A stretch of 34,287 nt of DNA from Treponema sp. (GTDB taxonomy: Bacteria > Spirochaetota > Spirochaetia > Treponematales > Treponemataceae), in contig JAKSTH010000012.1 in the NCBI GenBank assembly GCA_024402655.1, positions 1-34,287 of the forward strand. Direction: 5' to 3'. Below the pieces are notes generated by a model, which was given only the letters and a program-made list of their open reading frames with translations, was not told where the DNA came from and ran no database searches. This document shows positions 6,034 through 30,343 of the stretch, piece by piece (positions within the stretch are counted from its first letter, which is position 1; the number at the start of each line of letters is the position of its first letter). The translations under genes were made by a program, and so were the position numbers.

Positions 6034-6269
6034 TTTATTGCAAAACGGGCAAAAGGTGTTACTCTCAAAAAGAAGCTGGAGAAGTAATACGATTAGCCAG
6101 AAGAAGAAATAATTGTAAAAATAAAATACCTGTAAGAAGTTATTTTTGTAAAGTGTGCAGAAGTTACCACACTACAAGTAGAAAGCGGAATTGGTACAGG
6201 GAAGAACAAATAAAAAGAAGTGTAACGGGGATTAGAAGATATGAAAGAAATCAAGACTATTACGATTAA
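6003..6269 (+). CDS. Small zinc-ribbon-like protein
   Basis: An 88-residue basic protein. It has C-K-T-G-K-R-C-Y-S near the start, then a basic RLARRRNN helix, then Y-F-C-K-V-C-R-S-Y-H-T-T-S. The last motif (Y-x-C-x2-C-x3-H-x-T) is typical of small phage and bacterial zinc-ribbon proteins of unknown role. The start overlaps the previous gene and lacks a good ribosome-binding site, so it is presumably coupled. Confidence 0.6.
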   Translation: MLEITDEKTVIYCKTGKRCYSQKEAGEVIRLARRRNNCKNKIPVRSYFCKVCRSYHTTSRKRNWYREEQIKRSVTGIRRYERNQDYYD

Positions 6270-6924
6270 GTGCGAAAGCAAAGATGTATTGAACATTGCA
6301 GAAATGACCGAATTTCAAGGCAACTTGAAAGCGAGAACTGACATTGATTATGATAAAATTAAATTGTCAATTATTAAATATGGTTTCAGTTTCCCCTTCT
6401 TTATCTGGAAGGATGAAGGCAAGAATTATTTATTAGACGGACACGGTAGATTTGCTACATTATGCAAAATGCAGAAAGACGGATATATAATTCCAGATTT
6501 GCCTGTTGTTTATGTAGATTGTAAAGATGAAGCAGAAGCAAAACAGAAACTTCTTCGTTTGAATTCACAGTATGGAAAAATGACAAGCAAAAGTGTGTTG
6601 GATTTTATCGGAGAAGAAGAAATTGAAATTGAAGAACTTTCTTTACCAAAGGGTTTTTTAGATTTTGAAAAAGTTGAAGAAATAGAAGAAAGTCCAGAAG
6701 AAGAATTTGCACAGGAATTAGGGGAAGAAAATAACTACCTTGTTTTATTTTTTGATAGCACTATCGATTGGTTGCAAGTTCAAAGTTTATTTGAACTTAA
6801 AAGGGTGAAAGCGTTAAAATCCACAGATAACTTTCAGCAAAAAGGCGTAGGGAGAGTTATAAACGGAACTCAATTCATAAAAAAAATGCTTGAAGCAGAA
6901 GAAATGAAAAGGGGTGAAAAATGA
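6241..6924 (+). CDS. ParB/Srx-like nuclease-domain protein
   Basis: A 227-residue protein. The LLDGHGRFATL motif (about residues 64-74) is the G-H-x-R box of ParB/sulfiredoxin-like domains, and AKQKLLRLNSQYGKMT follows. Residues 130-160 are strongly acidic. Phage ParB-like proteins of this sort are found beside methyltransferases and DNA-modification genes. Here a glycosyltransferase overlaps its 3' end by 4 nt, suggesting a shared pathway. Partitioning is unlikely because no ParA is present. The catalytic role is uncertain. Confidence 0.75.
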   Translation: MKEIKTITIKCESKDVLNIAEMTEFQGNLKARTDIDYDKIKLSIIKYGFSFPFFIWKDEGKNYLLDGHGRFATLCKMQKDGYIIPDLPVVYVDCKDEAEAKQKLLRLNSQYGKMTSKSVLDFIGEEEIEIEELSLPKGFLDFEKVEEIEESPEEEFAQELGEENNYLVLFFDSTIDWLQVQSLFELKRVKALKSTDNFQQKGVGRVINGTQFIKKMLEAEEMKRGEK

Positions 6925-7679
6925 AAATTTCAGTATGTTGCCCATCTTATAAACGCCCAAAAGTTGAAACTTTAGATTATTTACCCTTCTGCAAGGTATA
7001 TGTTGACCCTAGTGAATATGAAGCATATATTGCTAAAAATCCTGCTGAAAATATCGTAAAATGTGATGAAGGAATACAGGGGAATTTGTGCAGAGTTAGG
7101 AATTATATATTAGACAAAGAATTTGAAGCTGGTGCAGATGTTGTTTTAATTGTTGATGATGACTTACACCATATTGGGCGTTTTGTGGCTGGTGAAGATA
7201 TAAGAGTTGAAACAGAAGATTTTTTGCCGTTTATTGAGAAATATAGCATAATGGCTATGGATTTAGGTGCATATTTCTGGGGTGTAAATATCAATGCTGA
7301 TTATAAATGTTATAGAGAATACACACCATTTTCAACTGTTGCTTATATTGGTGGACCATTCCAATGTTTTATAAAAGACGGTGGTTTGCGTTATGATGAA
7401 AGACTTCCACTAAAAGAAGATTACGATATGAGTATTCAGCAATGCAGAAAATACAGAAAAGTATTAAGAGTAAACGCTTATCATTATTTCTGTAAACAAT
7501 CAAAACAAAAAGGCGGTTGTGCCACATATCGTAATTCAGAAAAGGAAGTCGAACAATTAAAAGCATTAAGACGTAAATGGGGGGGGGCAATCGTTAAGTC
7601 TGATGTTTTTAGTAACAAAAGAAAAAGAAAGGTTATAGACTATAATCCGATTATCCATATACCAATAAAAGGTGTATAA
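6921..7679 (+). CDS. GT-A fold glycosyltransferase-like protein
   Basis: A 252-residue protein. It opens MKISVCCPSYKRP, the family-2-like nucleotide-sugar-binding start, and carries V-L-I-V-D-D-D (Asp79-81) as the DXD metal site. The later segment GGPFQCFIKDGG..LKEDYDMSIQQCR fits an acceptor-side E-D motif. It is cytoplasmic, with no membrane segment. The overlap with the ParB-like gene and the nearby methyltransferase suggest glycosylation of modified phage DNA bases, as proposed for TET-associated phage glycosyltransferases. No hydroxylase is visible here, so a protein or other acceptor remains possible. Confidence 0.7.
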   Translation: MKISVCCPSYKRPKVETLDYLPFCKVYVDPSEYEAYIAKNPAENIVKCDEGIQGNLCRVRNYILDKEFEAGADVVLIVDDDLHHIGRFVAGEDIRVETEDFLPFIEKYSIMAMDLGAYFWGVNINADYKCYREYTPFSTVAYIGGPFQCFIKDGGLRYDERLPLKEDYDMSIQQCRKYRKVLRVNAYHYFCKQSKQKGGCATYRNSEKEVEQLKALRRKWGGAIVKSDVFSNKRKRKVIDYNPIIHIPIKGV

Positions 7680-10229: not shown

Positions 10230-10724
10230 ATGAAATATATAGCGAGTTGCTCATTCGGAAAAGACAGTTTAGCAATGATACTAAAATTATTAGAATTACA
10301 TTACCCACTTGATGAAGTAATTTATTATAATACAGGTGCAGAGTTTAAGGCGATAGACAATAATAAAAATAAACTAATCCCCATACTTGAAAAAAATAAT
10401 ATTGTGTTCACAGAATTAAAACCTAAAGAAGATTTTTTCTACACAATGTTAGAAAGGAAAGTAAAACACAATGACGGAACAATAACTAACGGTTATATGT
10501 GGTGCGGTGGTGTTACACGTTGGGGAACTTCTAACAAAGTAAACGCAATAAAAGAACATTATAAAAAATATGGTGATGAATTTGTAATTGAGTATGTAGG
10601 TATAGCAATAGACGAACAAGAAAGAATATTGAGAGAGAGAGAGAGAGAAGTCAAAAAACTTCAAGATATACCCGTTAGCAGAATGGGGAATGACAGAAAA
10701 AGACTGTTTGAATTATTGTTATAA
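10230..10724 (+). pseudogene. PAPS reductase-family PP-loop protein, N-terminal part (frameshifted)
   Basis: The start is the ATG at 10230, with GGGGG 7 nt upstream; the ATG at 10203 lacks a ribosome-binding site. The product begins MKYIASCSFGKDSLAM, and SFGKDS is the ATP-pyrophosphatase PP-loop of the phosphoadenosine phosphosulfate reductase/DndC-like family. GYMWCGGVTRW and YVGIAIDEQERI follow as in that family. Frame is lost at a (GA)9 tract (10631-10648). The last 20-odd residues are out-of-frame, and the conserved C-terminus continues in the next frame at 10690. It could be a pseudogene, a phase-OFF allele, or a sequencing artefact. Confidence 0.8.
10631..10648 (+). repeat. (GA)9 dinucleotide tract at the frameshift
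   Basis: Nine perfect GA units inside the PP-loop gene, exactly where its reading frame breaks. Gain of one unit or loss of two would restore the frame with the downstream part. Confidence 0.95.
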
Positions 10725-10998
10725 AAATGGGTGGAATTGGGAAGAAAACGGAATAGATCTTTATAAAGTTTTAGACCGTGTTTCTTGTTGGTGTTGTTGG
10801 AATAAAAATCTAAAAGAATTAAAAAATATATATCAATTTATGCCAGAATATTGGGAACGGTTGAAAGTTTTACAAAGTAAAATAAAAATCCCGTTTAGAG
10901 ATAACGCAACAATATTTGACTTAGAAGAACGTTTCAAGAAAGAAACGAATAATGGGCTTTTCACATTGGAAGAAATAAAAAGTTGTATAAATAAATAA
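10648..10998 (+). pseudogene. PAPS reductase-family PP-loop protein, C-terminal part
   Basis: In the frame beginning at 10648, right after the GA tract, the DNA reads KSKNFKIYPLAEWGMTEKDC, then YCYKNGWNW and LYKVLDRVSCWCCWNKNLKEL. This is the conserved C-terminal half of phage PAPS reductase-family proteins (Y-P-L-x-E-W-G, T-E-x-D-C-L, R-V-S-C-W-C-C). It has no usable start of its own: the ATG at 10690 lies inside the conserved motif. It is therefore the second half of the gene begun at 10230, with the key cysteines intact. Confidence 0.8.
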
Positions 10999-11004
10999 AG
11001 GTGT

Positions 11005-11202
11005 ATGGGGAAGATAAAATTGGGGTGTAATAATTGTAAATACAAAGGAAAGGTAAAATATAAAGTTAGTGGTTGTAAATTATGGGAATGTAAAGTATTG
11101 GGCGAAGTTCCTTTTTGGACTAATAAAGAAAAATTGCTTGATACTGTAAAGTGCGAAAGCTGGGTTTCGAAAGAAGATTTACAACAGGAGTTTGAATTCT
11201 AA
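11005..11202 (+). CDS. Small cysteine-rich hypothetical protein
   Basis: A 65-residue protein with cysteines at 8, 11, 24, 29 and 50 (GCNNCKYKG, GCKLWEC, VKCESW), a likely zinc-binding fold. It follows the PP-loop gene by 6 nt with AGGTG as a weak ribosome-binding site, so it is probably in the same unit. Function unknown. Confidence 0.6.
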   Translation: MGKIKLGCNNCKYKGKVKYKVSGCKLWECKVLGEVPFWTNKEKLLDTVKCESWVSKEDLQQEFEF

Positions 11203-11412
11203 ATGAAAGTGTTAAATATAAAATGTGAACTTGCTTTTCAGACTTTAGCATTTCACCAAAGAATAGATAAAAGCGGTAGAAGGCAATTTAACGATTTTAC
11301 TTTCCTTCATAATATGCTAGAATGGGGAGTAATATATTATTATACAAGAGAGCATAATAACACATTGTATGTATTAGAAAAGTTTAGAAAAAGAAGTGGG
11401 GGCATAGAATGA
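11203..11412 (+). CDS. Small hypothetical protein
   Basis: A 69-residue protein starting MKVLNIKCELAFQTL, immediately after the previous stop, with ACAGGAG upstream as ribosome-binding site. It is aromatic and basic (RRQFNDFTFLHNMLEWGVIYYY). It overlaps the next gene by 4 nt. No family recognised. Confidence 0.55.
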   Translation: MKVLNIKCELAFQTLAFHQRIDKSGRRQFNDFTFLHNMLEWGVIYYYTREHNNTLYVLEKFRKRSGGIE

Positions 11413-26675: not shown

Positions 26676-28160
26676 ATGAAAGAATTACCAGCAATAAAAT
26701 TATATAATTATATAAATGACACTTTTGTTTTAGTTGCGATTATTGATGATGTTGAAAGCCTTGAAATGCAACATTCAAAATATGAAGCTGGCTCTTTCAT
26801 TATTCAGATAAATTACAATGTTGCTAATTCACATCTATTTGAAAAAAATATGTTTATCCAGATTGGAGATGATAAACGTGATTTTTTCGTTATTACAAAA
26901 GTAGTTGATGAAATTGGGCAAGATGGAAAGGCTTCACAGATAAGGACAATATCGGGATATGATTGCCGTTATATTTATAAAAGACGTGTAATTAAAGAAT
27001 TGAATAATGGAGATAAATGGACTTATTCTGGTGATGGTGAAGATTGTATTAGAAATTTAATTGCTTCTCAAACAGAAGGCAAAAGAAGTTTACCTATAAA
27101 TAATATTATAGGGCGTGCAGAAGGTGTTGGCAAAAGATATTCAGTAAGTGAAGCATATAGTAATTTATATGATGTATGTTGCACGATTGCTACTCAAACT
27201 GAAATTGGTTGGCAAGTTGTTTTTGAAAATAATGAAATGACACTTGAATTTTATTATGGGGTTTCCAGAACTTCCACAGTAAGATTTGATACATCTTTTG
27301 AAAGTCTTTCAAATGGTAAATTTGAAGATACAACAGAAAGTTATACAAATGCCGTTTATATTGGCGGTAATGGAAGCGGTTCTAATAAAGATATTTACGA
27401 AGGCGAGAACTTCGATACTTCTGATTATTTACTTATAAATGAAGATGGCGGAAGGCTTGAAATTGGCTTAAACAGTTATTTAATTGTAAAGGGAAAAAGA
27501 CCAGAAGGATTGAACAGGTTTGAAGCGTGGGATAATGCAAGTGGTCTAACTTCTGAAACACAATATATAAATGAAAGTATTTCTTTATTAAGCCAATATG
27601 GGCAGACACTTTCATTAAGTGGAAATGGGCTTATAAAATGTCCTTATGTATTTCGTGAACAGTATGATATTGGTGATGTTGTTACTGTTGCTTTTAGTGG
27701 AAAAACGGCTTCTGTACAGATCTTGAGTATTACAGAAAATTGGGCTTGGGGTTCTTATGAATTGAGTTTTGAATTCGGCAAGCCTATTCCAGATTTAAGC
27801 CGACAACTTGCTATGATGGTGAATAAAATACAAACATATCAAGCAACGGCAGAAGAAAAATCTACAAGCGGAATTAAATATTATGTAATACCAGAAGAAA
27901 CAGAACAGGCTGAAAGCGAAGTTGGATTGGACGTTTTAGGTTTTACGGGTAATGTTGGAAGTGGTTCAACTTTCAAATTATATCTTAATGGAAAAGTAGG
28001 TGCTAAAACATATTCAATTTATATTAAGCAATTAGCGGGTGCTGGTAAATTGACATTGACAACGGGTGTTGTTGGTAAGAGTGATTTGTTGCTAGATGGT
28101 GGAACATACGTTACTATTATTTATGTAGATACAGACGGAAACGTTGAAAGAATTATATAG
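26676..28160 (+). CDS. Baseplate hub/Tal N-domain protein (Gp37-like)
   Basis: A 494-residue protein from ATG 26676 (TAGGTG upstream; GTG 26667 is in frame but overlaps the Dit stop). The first ~370 residues match the siphovirus ReqiPepy6 Gp37-like/Tal hub layout (LEMQHSKYEAGSFIIQIN, DFFVITKV, SGYDCRYIYKRR, LPYV-like central strands, YDIGDVVTVAFSG). It forms the tail tip under Dit. The C-terminal ~110 residues are a small glycine-rich beta domain. It is followed by the tail fibre with a TAGGAG site. Confidence 0.8.
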   Translation: MKELPAIKLYNYINDTFVLVAIIDDVESLEMQHSKYEAGSFIIQINYNVANSHLFEKNMFIQIGDDKRDFFVITKVVDEIGQDGKASQIRTISGYDCRYIYKRRVIKELNNGDKWTYSGDGEDCIRNLIASQTEGKRSLPINNIIGRAEGVGKRYSVSEAYSNLYDVCCTIATQTEIGWQVVFENNEMTLEFYYGVSRTSTVRFDTSFESLSNGKFEDTTESYTNAVYIGGNGSGSNKDIYEGENFDTSDYLLINEDGGRLEIGLNSYLIVKGKRPEGLNRFEAWDNASGLTSETQYINESISLLSQYGQTLSLSGNGLIKCPYVFREQYDIGDVVTVAFSGKTASVQILSITENWAWGSYELSFEFGKPIPDLSRQLAMMVNKIQTYQATAEEKSTSGIKYYVIPEETEQAESEVGLDVLGFTGNVGSGSTFKLYLNGKVGAKTYSIYIKQLAGAGKLTLTTGVVGKSDLLLDGGTYVTIIYVDTDGNVERII

Positions 28161-28172
28161 GAGTAAGAAAAA

Positions 28173-28979
28173 ATGGCAGATAGTACAATACAAGGGTTAA
28201 TTCCAATTGATGAATTAGAAAAAGATGATTTATTTCCAATTTGGGACAATTCAGCAGGAAACGATAATACAAAGAAAGCAACGGCTTTACAGATGGCAAA
28301 GTTTGTAGGAAGTGCGGGGCTTTCTTCTGTAAATATTACAAGTAATACAAAAGATTTTGTAATTTCGATAGAAGGTAAAGAATTGCAAGACGCAATGACA
28401 TTAAACATTACCGCTTTAGTTGAAATTACAGGAAGTGAAAATGATGTTTTGACTATTGCTTATAATGGTGGCGAAGCTAAAAATATTAAAGTAAATAAAG
28501 ATGGTGTATTGGCTGATTATGTTCCTTTTAATGTAGATAGTAGTTGGAAATTCTTACAGGCTTTCACAAGTTTAGATGTAAAATATATTGAAAATCTTGA
28601 TTGCTGGATTGTAGTTGGAAATCCTGTTGTATTTTCAAATTCTTCTTCAACATCTGGATATACAATTTATGCAGACGGCAGAAAGGTATACCGAGTAGCA
28701 TTACAGTGGCGAAGTAATACAAGAGTAAGATGTATTACACCAATTGCCTTAGTCCTTAATTTAGACGGTGGAAACGATAACGGAAACTTTGCACTTGTAA
28801 CTGACGGAAGTTGTGCAATTGGCAACACTGATTTTTCATTGTATGATAGCCGTTATTTTACTGGTTATCGTTTGTTGCACTATACATTGGATATTGACAG
28901 CAAGTTAATTGGTGGACAAGTCAAACTAGATAGGTTTAATACTACTAGCGATTACGTCTTTATTAATTTCACTTTATAA
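28173..28979 (+). CDS. Tail fibre/receptor-binding protein, active tip orientation
   Basis: A 268-residue protein. Residues 1-~165 are the constant stem (MADSTIQGLIPIDELEKDDLFP, a typical fibre N-terminus, then beta-rich). Y-A-D-G-R (166-170) is encoded across the left inverted repeat. Residues 171-268 are the active variable tip, ending DYVFINFTL. A silent alternative tip on the opposite strand begins at the same in-frame Y-x-D-G-R, so inversion would give a ~253-residue protein with a different tip. The tip would contact the host receptor. TAGGAG lies before the ATG. Confidence 0.88.
   Translation: MADSTIQGLIPIDELEKDDLFPIWDNSAGNDNTKKATALQMAKFVGSAGLSSVNITSNTKDFVISIEGKELQDAMTLNITALVEITGSENDVLTIAYNGGEAKNIKVNKDGVLADYVPFNVDSSWKFLQAFTSLDVKYIENLDCWIVVGNPVVFSNSSSTSGYTIYADGRKVYRVALQWRSNTRVRCITPIALVLNLDGGNDNGNFALVTDGSCAIGNTDFSLYDSRYFTGYRLLHYTLDIDSKLIGGQVKLDRFNTTSDYVFINFTL
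28667..28683 (+). repeat. Left inverted repeat of tail-tip switch
   Basis: TTATGCAGACGGCAGAA, matching the right copy in 16 of 17 positions with 12 consecutive identical bases. It has internal dyad symmetry (TTATGC and GCAGAA flank AGACG), as expected for a serine recombinase site. It codes Y-A-D-G-R. Confidence 0.85.
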
Positions 28980-28984
28980 ATAAT

Positions 28985-29014
28985 AAAGCCTAGTTTTCAC
29001 TAGGCTTTTATTTT
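28985..29014. terminator. Bidirectional terminator at centre of the switch
   Basis: AAAGCCTAG (28985-28993) and CTAGGCTTT (29000-29008) form a perfect 9-bp stem. T-rich sequence follows on the plus strand, and a weaker T-containing tract (TTTATTATT) follows on the minus strand. It serves whichever tip is in the plus orientation. Confidence 0.85.
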
Positions 29015-29281
29015 TTAATAATTAGTAAAGATAAAGTCCATAACAATTGGAGTATTAAGAGCCGTACTTCTATCCAGTAAATAAATTCTCATAGTACAAG
29101 ATTTTTTTGCTTTAGATACGATTGTAACACCAGAGCTCCAACCTACATTATTTGAAGTAAATCCACCACTCATAACGTTATAGTTTGTGTCTTTAAATTC
29201 TATAGGAAAATTAGCGACACAATTATTTATGGAGTCTGGTCTAGTAAGTTTTAACCATTGTCTAATTCTGCCGTCTGTATA
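29015..29281 (-). CDS. Silent alternative tail-fibre tip cassette
   Basis: On the minus strand an open frame without a start codon reads Y-T-D-G-R, then 83 residues beginning IRQWLKLTRPDS, including FPIEFKDTNYNVMSGGF and ending IVMDFIFTNY before TAA (29015-29017). F-x-x-x-F-K-D-T-N-Y is a pattern common in phage fibre tips. It has no promoter or ribosome-binding site, and its frame opens right after the recombinase stop codon. It would be expressed only after inversion joins it to residue 170 of the fibre. Confidence 0.8.
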   Translation of the reverse strand, partial: YTDGRIRQWLKLTRPDSINNCVANFPIEFKDTNYNVMSGGFTSNNVGWSSGVTIVSKAKKSCTMRIYLLDRSTALNTPIVMDFIFTNY

Positions 29282-29282
29282 A
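29266..29282 (-). repeat. Right inverted repeat of tail-tip switch
   Basis: On the minus strand TTATACAGACGGCAGAA, one mismatch to the left repeat. It codes Y-T-D-G-R in the same codon phase as the left copy. Confidence 0.85.
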
Positions 29283-29298
29283 GAAAGATACTGTTTAT

Positions 29299-29330
29299 GT
29301 ATAGTAAAACCTTAATTTACTATACGGTTT
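29299..29330 (+). terminator. Palindrome/terminator between switch and recombinase
   Basis: GTATAGTAAA (29299-29308) and TTTACTATAC (29316-29325) are perfect 10-bp arms, followed on the plus strand by GGTTTTT. It probably stops tail transcription from running into the recombinase, whose stop codon lies in the loop. It could also bind the recombinase. Confidence 0.65.
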
Positions 29331-29980
29331 TTCTTTGCTTCACAGTAATTTTGAAATCTTGTACAACTTTCTATCTTAGACATATCCCATTTTAGCCTAT
29401 CTCTAATAAAATCCCGTGCGGTAGACCATTTAACACTATATTTATTTGCGATAAATAAAATAGATTTTCCCTGTAATAAATAATTAGTTATTTCTTCTGT
29501 ATATGGTGTTAGTTTTACATTTGTACATTTGAAACCCTTGTAATGTCCGATTTTCTGACCTTGTGCCATTTTTGCCCTTAATGCTTCTTTAGTTCTTTCG
29601 CTAATTCTCTGACGTTCCATTTGTGCAAGTCCAGCATATATAGTTGTCATAAATTCATAATTGGGAGTACCGCTAATTAGATTTTCTTTAATTAGATGTA
29701 CTTTAATTTCTTTTTGTTTTAGTTCTTCAATTGTGGAAACTGTATCTGCGGTAGATCTACCAAGACGGGATAGTTCTGGAGTAAGCAGAATATCACCCCG
29801 TTCTAATTTTTCAACTAAAATCCCTAAATCTCTTTTATTTCTAGGAACTTTTCCCGAAACCTTTTCTTCTACAACTTCGTCAATTCTCAATCCGTGTAAT
29901 TCTGCATACTGTTGTAGTGCAAACAGTTGCCCCGTAAAATCTTGCTTTTCGGTTGATACTCTAATATAAGCGTATACCAT
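29312..29980 (-). CDS. Small serine recombinase, DNA invertase type
   Basis: A 222-residue resolvase/invertase. YAYIRVSTEKQ carries the catalytic Ser9 with Arg7. Conserved L-S-R-L-G-R-S (Arg72, Arg75) and the long helix around AQMERQRISERTKEAL follow. A C-terminal helix-turn-helix (about 155-192) includes SILFIANKYSVKWSTARDFIRDRL. It lacks the large C-terminal domain of phage serine integrases. Length is close to Gin/Hin with a slightly longer tail. It lies head-on against the tail-fibre tip switch and is the obvious invertase. An AGGGGG site precedes the ATG on the minus strand. Confidence 0.92.
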   Translation of the reverse strand: MVYAYIRVSTEKQDFTGQLFALQQYAELHGLRIDEVVEEKVSGKVPRNKRDLGILVEKLERGDILLTPELSRLGRSTADTVSTIEELKQKEIKVHLIKENLISGTPNYEFMTTIYAGLAQMERQRISERTKEALRAKMAQGQKIGHYKGFKCTNVKLTPYTEEITNYLLQGKSILFIANKYSVKWSTARDFIRDRLKWDMSKIESCTRFQNYCEAKKNRIVN

Positions 29981-30008
29981 TTAAACACCCCCTATAAAAC
30001 GTATACCA
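29971..30008. promoter_or_regulatory. Direct repeats over recombinase start (candidate operator)
   Basis: CGTATACCA occurs at 29971-29979 (over the start codon) and again at 30000-30008, flanking the recombinase ribosome-binding site. GTATACC also lies beside the left inverted repeat at 28686-28692. It may be a binding motif for autoregulation. Confidence 0.4.
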
Positions 30009-30127
30009 CTAAAACAAATAAAAGTCTAGTTTTTTGCTCATATCTCAATATTTTTTATTGCCACTATTTGCGTGGTGGTTGTATACTTTCATTGCAAGAC
30101 CAAAAAGTAAAAAAAACGGAGTTGATT

Positions 30128-30343
30128 ATGGACAATGAAACAGAACGCAAGATTGAGCAATTAGAAAAAAAGCTTGATGATTTGCCAGCCCAGATAACAA
30201 AAAGCATAGCAGAAACAATGGATTTGAAAATTACAAATGCTATGCAGAAAATTAAACTTGATTTTTATGCTTGGCTTGTCCCTATTATTTTAGGATTGCT
30301 TGGAACAATGGCGGGGCTTGTTTATTCATTTATAATTAAATAG
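30128..30343 (+). CDS. XhlA/holin-like membrane protein
   Basis: A 71-residue protein from ATG 30128 with GGAG upstream; the in-frame TTG at 30068 lacks support. A charged coiled coil (ETERKIEQLEKKLDDLPAQI) leads to one C-terminal transmembrane helix (WLVPIILGLLGTMAGLVYSFII). This is the layout of XhlA-type proteins that help holins permeabilise the membrane. It opens the lysis cassette. The gap behind it (29981-30127) is the intergenic region between divergent genes. Confidence 0.7.
   Translation: MDNETERKIEQLEKKLDDLPAQITKSIAETMDLKITNAMQKIKLDFYAWLVPIILGLLGTMAGLVYSFIIK

What the first reader, a model, noticed from the sequence alone, without database searches (positions are those of the whole stretch)
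28667..29282. Minimal invertible tail-tip switch with a silent second receptor-binding end
Two convergent C-terminal coding ends lie between 17-bp inverted repeats (16/17 identical) placed in the same codon phase at Y-A-D-G-R and Y-T-D-G-R. The minus-strand end is an 83-codon open frame with fibre-like sequence and no start codon, promoter or ribosome-binding site. A bidirectional terminator sits at the centre and a serine invertase sits immediately outside. The whole switch is ~616 bp, far smaller than the ~3-kb Mu G segment, and only the last ~100 residues swap. This predicts two host-range forms of the phage.
Basis: partly seen in the sequence, partly recalled or inferred. Interest (0 to 1): 0.95.

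Follow-up and report, generated by a model that had tools for sequence, protein, structure and literature searches.

The report
Flippable two-ended phage tail-fibre tip
In a phage genome binned with a likely Treponema bacterium, a 616-base DNA segment holds two different ends for one tail-fibre gene placed head to head, and a neighbouring DNA-inverting enzyme is predicted to flip the segment, which would change the part of the virus that touches its host; the same layout recurs in other phages.

Summary
Window 28667-28683 and 29266-29282 are 16/17 inverted repeats in the same codon phase. They bracket the end of a tail-fibre gene and a start-less, stop-free second end on the other strand, with a terminator between and a serine recombinase 29 bp outside. 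The repeat alone is within chance (62 of 100 shuffles have such a pair); the full geometry is not (0 of 100). The silent end resembles the Gp53-like tail-fibre tip family. A metagenomic relative keeps the stem (96%) and changes the tip at the repeat.

The layout recurs at seven further loci in the genus, five with an Mpi-like invertase beside them, and in IMG/VR phages; silent frames are intact at six of the seven. In one phage pair the flanks match, and part of the segment between the arms matches in inverted orientation, the tip silent in one being related to the tip active in the other. One phage contig ends in the presumed site.

Inversion in this phage is not shown. The principle (Mu G, P1 C, e14 P, Min, Rin) is known; this is a compact, chaperone-less variant with a different invertase lineage.

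The parts
28173..28667 (+). Constant stem of the tail-fibre gene (residues 1-165)
   Evidence: 96% identical to P0004 and 50% to P0005 up to the hinge, then unlike; model confident (block means 70-88) over about residues 50-170, below 50 from 175 on; that model weakly resembles predicted phage proteins, several named tail fibre or minor tail protein (Foldseek E <= 0.001 for 25, but TM 0.2-0.3)
28667..28683 (+). Left arm TTATGCAGACGGCAGAA, coding Y-A-D-G-R (predicted crossover site)
   Evidence: imperfect palindrome, 12 of 17 positions self-complementary
28668..28979 (+). Active tip: last 103 residues of the fibre and stop
   Evidence: no Pfam family above cut-off
28985..29008 (.). Central bidirectional terminator-like hairpin
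29015..29281 (-). Silent tip: 88-codon open frame with stop, without a start codon at its head
   Evidence: PF21882 Gp53-like_C E 2e-4, 22.3 bits against cut-off 24.9; phrog_1396 tail fibre 1.6e-4; first ATG is codon 37
29266..29282 (-). Right arm TTATACAGACGGCAGAA, coding Y-T-D-G-R (predicted crossover site)
29312..29980 (-). Mpi-like serine recombinase (predicted invertase), outside the segment
   Evidence: PF00239 3e-36, phrog_125 DNA invertase 1.4e-46, NF009949 Mpi 7.5e-42 but 143 bits against cut-off 272; aligned to gamma-delta resolvase 1gdt with the R-x-S and L-x-R-x-x-R motifs kept (that these are catalytic is recalled)

Best explanation
Window 28667-29282 is a 616-bp two-tip cassette of a phage tail-fibre gene, predicted to be inverted by the Mpi-like serine recombinase at 29312-29980, which would swap the fibre's last 103 residues for a now silent 88-residue tip. 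Shown: one stem gene with a start codon, two convergent tips in the same codon phase, arms that code the hinge Y-(A/T)-D-G-R, a terminator-like hairpin between the two stops, and a recombinase gene outside the segment. Inferred: the enzyme pairs the two 17-bp arms and recombines them; because both arms lie in the same phase, each inversion would leave an intact fibre gene with the other tip and park the first tip start-less on the opposite strand. Inferred: a phage population carries both forms, which would differ in receptor binding. Relatives show the same plan with two tips or with three or more.
For: Geometry in 0 of 100 shuffles. Silent end is fibre-tip-like. Same plan at G099:C47, G083:C112, G078:C17/C73, G095:C44, G107:C2, G200:C2 and, interrupted, G200:C1, and in IMG/VR L187, L193, L197, L217, L218 (5 of the 48 loci, judged on the scan). 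L250/L251: DNA 94% identical up to the left arm and 89% from the right arm on; between the arms megablast finds nothing, but blastn with words of 7 finds one 155-bp match, 69%, on the opposite strand (E 1.6e-14), and L250's silent tip matches L251's active tip (49% over 104 aa, E 1e-31). In L218 an outer start-less frame with a partly conserved arm resembles L197's active tip (36.5% over 52 aa, E 1e-6), the stems being 89% identical. Phage contig L240 (33 kb) ends inside the presumed site. The scan recovers Mu's G segment as a positive control.
Against: No inverted copy of this segment was found: the window's DNA matched itself and otherwise only 28-58-bp stretches in 10 of 200 genus genomes; viral contigs gave no relative of the fibre or close relative of the invertase. 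The repeat alone is within chance. The silent tip is under Pfam's cut-off, and that family also rings in 2 of 14 control genomes, one an archaeon. G107:C2 has the layout but no serine-invertase match on that contig, and L246, L250, L251, L258 and L260 show no serine-recombinase-like frame in the flank held, so layout and enzyme are not always linked; hence the best inversion evidence (L250/L251) comes from a relative without a visible enzyme. Tip exchange between phages could also explain changed tips. Tip structure could not be modelled (pLDDT 59 for the silent tip; under 50 for the active tip).
Confidence: 0.86

Rival explanations
1. The silent tip is a relic of past module exchange at a recombination hot spot; the enzyme no longer flips it and the phage has one fixed tip.
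For: No flipped copy of this segment seen; arms differ at one base; P0004 and P0005 show tips replaced wholesale; one relative switch is interrupted (G200:C1).
Against: Silent frame stop-free over 88 codons; silent frames intact at 6 of the 7 other genus loci; full-length recombinase frame with conserved motifs.
Confidence: 0.09
2. The enzyme's main role is gain and exchange of tip cassettes between phages at a shared hinge site; inversion is secondary.
For: Stems with the same hinge carry many unlike tips (P0126-P0130); relatives carry three or more tips (G200:C2, L187, L217; L188).
Against: The window holds only two sites, in inverted orientation, which for this enzyme class favours inversion (established knowledge, recalled); the parked tip is kept in frame; L250/L251 differ by an inverted, not just replaced, stretch.
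Confidence: 0.12
3. The minus-strand frame is a chance open frame and the repeat a chance repeat beside an unrelated recombinase.
For: Such repeats are common in this AT-rich window (62 of 100 shuffles).
Against: 0 of 100 shuffles have the geometry; tip-family similarity; recurrence at other loci.
Confidence: 0.01

Closest known systems
Phage Mu G segment / Gin (also P1 C / Cin)
   Same: Serine invertase outside the segment, inverted arms inside the fibre frame, stem plus two convergent C-terminal parts (Mu record)
   Different: Mu: 3084 bp and 34/34 arms by my scan, 338/322-codon ends, assembly-protein genes U/U' inside the segment. Here 616 bp, 103/88 codons, no such gene. The window's invertase is about 31% identical to Mu's
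E. coli e14 P segment
   Same: Serine recombinases; inversion inside two opposed fibre genes; one product carries a gp53-like C-terminal domain (passages of PMC12529663)
   Different: 1797 bp with tfa genes inside, in a cryptic prophage; its enzymes belong to the Gin/Hin group (recalled)
P2-like prophage inversions in E. coli
   Same: Inverted repeats giving alternative C-termini of one protein, two or more forms coexisting (passages of PMC4272514)
   Different: Proteobacterial, Hin-homologous enzymes; segment sizes not seen in the passages
Bifidobacterium Rin shufflon and the ~500-bp inverted locus of Bb423phi2/689b-1
   Same: Constant receptor-binding-protein N-terminus with swappable C-termini; the second locus is as small as this one and changes a gene's 3' end (passages of PMC6109161)
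   Different: Rin uses a predicted tyrosine recombinase and several Rv cassettes with 11-bp sites; the ~500-bp locus has an 8-bp site, no adjacent recombinase and genes of unknown function
Bacteroides Mpi (master DNA invertase)
   Same: NCBIfam's Mpi model matches the window's and all five relative invertases tested
   Different: The window's enzyme (143 bits) and G078's (253 bits) score below the cut-off of 272; Mpi acts globally in trans (PMC6109161 passage), on promoters as recalled, not on a fibre tip

Membership tests
Tail-fibre C-terminal inversion systems (Mu G type) | Inverted arms inside the fibre reading frame, same phase, bracketing two convergent ends | tested here: met
   Mu recovered by the same kind of scan
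Tail-fibre C-terminal inversion systems (Mu G type) | Serine recombinase next to, and outside, the segment | tested here: met
   29312-29980
Tail-fibre C-terminal inversion systems (Mu G type) | Fibre-assembly protein genes inside the segment | tested here: not met
   the 616 bp hold two tips and a hairpin; the Mu record has U/U'
Tail-fibre C-terminal inversion systems (Mu G type) | Recombinational enhancer and Fis dependence | not tested
   no enhancer search was made
Tail-fibre C-terminal inversion systems (Mu G type) | Inversion observed, with altered host range | not testable with these tools
   no reads; no flipped copy of this segment
Mpi invertase family (NF009949) | Score above curated cut-off 272 | tested here: not met
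   143 bits, E 7.5e-42
Gp53-like_C tip (PF21882), silent end | Score above gathering cut-off 24.9 | tested here: not met
   22.3 bits, E 2e-4; 11 of 12 tips in A7 match at E <= 0.01, but most of those loci were found with this family
Shufflon (Min, R64, Rin) | Three or more sites and alternative cassettes | tested here: not met
   two sites only; relatives G200:C2 and L187 have three hinges, L188 five
Rin system | Tyrosine recombinase | tested here: not met
   PF00239 serine resolvase domain

The most novel reading that the evidence does not exclude
Hinge-coded tip switches of about 0.45-1 kb, driven largely by Mpi-like invertases, form a widespread and unrecognised class of phage host-range switch, especially in spirochaete phages. 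The recombination site itself encodes the conserved hinge of the fibre (Y-A-D-G or N-G-L-x-x-Q-W), and the class grades from two-tip flip to multi-tip shufflon. The same invertase group also swaps the specificity ends of type IIG restriction-modification enzymes, so one enzyme lineage would diversify both attack and defence.
Probability: 0.5. Interest if true: 0.75.

Novelty: new variant of a known kind. Interest (0 to 1): 0.6.

Why it matters
It would show that a phage can hold two receptor-binding ends at the cost of about 300 bases beyond the enzyme gene, without a second assembly protein. The layout is easy to search for, so host range in uncultured spirochaete and gut phages could be read as a population state rather than one fixed sequence. 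A start-less silent tip escapes start-based gene lists (it is absent from the 60-aa ORF list), so host prediction would miss half of the repertoire.

Tried and rejected
Other copies of the site in the bin: 3 further near matches (1-2 mismatches). L003 and L004 look, by eye, like a regulator and an ATPase operon; L005 was not inspected; treated as chance. Silent-tip hits L148-L150 (E 0.004-0.009) lie in or beside frames that look like unrelated bacterial genes and were rejected. PF21882 hits in G150 and G162 showed no such layout. Window site in viral contigs: 12 loci with one site each; 8 of the 12 were tested for a partner arm and none had one. Exact terminal repeat of the contig (20-399 bp): none. 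Silent tip in named phages: no match; stem in named phages: no match; the active tip alone was not searched there (one search failed). Structure: silent-tip model pLDDT 59, active tip under 50, so neither tip was fold-searched on its own; PDB search of the whole fibre model gave no E <= 0.001. Rfam over 28000-30200: nothing. Of 319 named phage records with an invertase match I tested 5 Mpi-like places (H1, H2, H4, H5, H11): none has a switch. Among the 33 loci and 80 I judged none a tail-tip switch, though four of the 80 show methylase switches. The scan is loose; I sorted tail from non-tail rows by eye and rejected rows such as L079, L106, L170, L190, L195, L220 and L224. I did not inspect all invertase places.

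Full report
SETTING. The window is one whole contig (G000:C24) of a 2.57-Mb, 239-contig bin. It encodes a tailed phage: terminase, portal, head, tape measure, Dit-like and minor tail proteins, then the fibre. Genomes placed in the same genus have contigs whose lengths equal named Treponema records (35424 bp, Treponema RUG517; 2626237 bp, T. parvum), so the bin is probably Treponema (inference); that the phage infects that host rests on binning alone.

OBSERVATION. The 17-bp repeat by itself is unremarkable in AT-rich DNA: 62 of 100 dinucleotide shuffles contain one or more, and the window holds a second such pair at 27319-28641. The combination (arms in phase with two convergent open ends of at least 60 codons) occurs once in the window and in none of 100 shuffles.

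WHAT THE PARTS ARE. The silent end matches Gp53-like_C (E 2e-4, slightly below cut-off) and a PHROG tail-fibre family. The recombinase is a serine resolvase/invertase, aligned over gamma-delta resolvase, whose best NCBIfam match is the Mpi model, below its cut-off. The fibre model is confident from about residue 50 to 170 and not beyond 175, so the modelled domain ends at the hinge that the arm encodes. It weakly resembles predicted phage proteins: 25 BFVD matches at E <= 0.001, several named tail fibre or minor tail protein, but TM-scores of only 0.2-0.3 and a best match with an unrelated name; PDB gave nothing at E <= 0.001.

STEM CONSTANT, TIP VARIABLE. Three proteins of the 5.8-billion set match the fibre at E <= 0.001, itself included (677 candidates scored). 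P0004 is 96% identical to the stem and P0005 50%, and both stop matching at about Y-(A/S)-D-G. A profile search adds five fibres (P0126-P0130) that share 'NPVV...YTIYADG' and then carry unlike tips.

RECURRENCE IN THE GENUS. PF21882 in 194 related genomes matched 7, the bin included; five of these have the layout and two (G150, G162) do not. The same family rang in 2 of 14 control genomes. A site pattern in 200 genus genomes matched 4, with 0 matches of the reversed control in the rows shown. With the G099 locus, found by stem similarity, the loci are: G099:C47 962 bp, arms 25/25, 160/157 codons; G083:C112 509 bp, 24/24, 85/84; G078:C17 and C73 (98% alike) 457 bp, 23/25, 73/78; G095:C44 478 bp, 19/22, 71/87; G107:C2 618 bp, 63/63, 100/94; G200:C2 three sites, one active and two silent tips; G200:C1 1418 bp, 23/23, both tips cut short and a transposase-like frame inside. 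In each pair the best frames run in the same phase from both arms. An Mpi-like invertase is adjacent in G099, G083, G078, G095 and G200:C2, not matched on G107:C2, and not seen in the 3 kb held for G200:C1.

RECURRENCE IN VIRAL CONTIGS. Of 48 IMG/VR loci with a relative of these invertases, I judge five to be tail-tip switches: L187 (467 bp), L193 (511), L197 (hinge IYADG, 1001), L217 (574) and L218 (850). L188 holds five NGLLIQW hinges, but I could not identify its active fibre. Of 48 loci found with a G078-type fibre, five more have the layout (L246, L250, L251, L258, L260; 585-805 bp), without a serine-recombinase-like frame in the flank held; in L246 the two ends could not be told apart as active or silent.

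SIGNS OF SWITCHING. No read data were available. Three indirect signs. (a) L250 and L251 are 94% identical in DNA up to the left arm and 89% from the right arm on. Between the arms, megablast aligns nothing; blastn with words of 7 aligns the last 155 bp of L250's segment to the first 155 bp of L251's on the opposite strand (69%, E 1.6e-14). At protein level L250's silent tip matches L251's active tip (49% over 104 aa, E 1e-31). The segment thus differs in orientation between two otherwise close phages, though the other tips differ too. (b) L197 and L218 have stems 89% identical; an outer start-less frame of L218, with only part of the arm conserved, resembles the active tip of L197 (36.5% over 52 aa, E 1e-6). 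(c) The 33-kb contig L240 stops inside the presumed hinge arm, as an assembly would where two junctions coexist; that reading is inference. These concern relatives, not the window's phage, and tip exchange between phages could contribute to (a) and (b).

KNOWN SYSTEMS. Mu's G segment is found by the same kind of scan (3084 bp, 34/34 arms) and carries U/U'. P1 C (4.2 kb) and e14 P (1.8 kb, one product with a gp53-like end), P2-like prophage C-terminal variation, and Rin and a ~500-bp Bifidobacterium phage inversion are in print; I read passages only, as; one search concerned host invertons. Eight literature searches listed no Mpi-type tail-tip switch and no Treponema phage switch that I recognised from titles and abstracts; the library holds open-licence papers only. 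Hence: new variant of a known kind.

LIMITS. The tip-family evidence for several relatives is partly circular, because they were found with that family. Sorting of scan rows was by eye. A second Mpi-like match exists in the bin (G000:C178) and was not examined. Function of either tip and any host-range change are untested.

Noticed in passing
L070, L093, L112, L123, L201, L202, L214: Mpi-like invertases also sit near inverted, in-phase C-terminal ends of methylases. L123 and L093 are Eco57I/TaqI_C type IIG-like proteins and L112 an Eco57I methylase; the other four are judged from shared motifs by eye only.
   Followed up: partly
window 6921-7679 (+), with 2113-2937 and 6241-6924: TET-associated glycosyltransferase (PF20691 E 8.9e-11), a DNA methylase and a methylase/ParB-like gene: the phage may carry glycosylated or otherwise hypermodified DNA.
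   Followed up: no
L188 4592-5730: Five NGLLIQW tip hinges in one array, with the same 11 residues upstream of the two outer ones and two tips 68% alike: a larger tip shufflon.
   Followed up: no
L180 (G200:C1) 1500-2917: A tip switch with perfect 23-bp arms that holds a transposase-like frame; both tips are cut short.
   Followed up: no
L246, L250, L251, L258, L260: Tail-tip switches with hinges TALNSK/TALNGK or LNQNL and no serine-recombinase-like frame in the flank held; the enzyme may act in trans or be of another kind.
   Followed up: partly
L145 (G046:C25) 10547-11229: Two tandem fibre-tip-like frames sharing GGACGGACAA, next to an invertase and near a contig end: perhaps part of another tip array.
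   Followed up: no
G000:C178:15434-16021: A second recombinase, 36% identical to the window's, lies elsewhere in the bin; it might act in trans.
   Followed up: no
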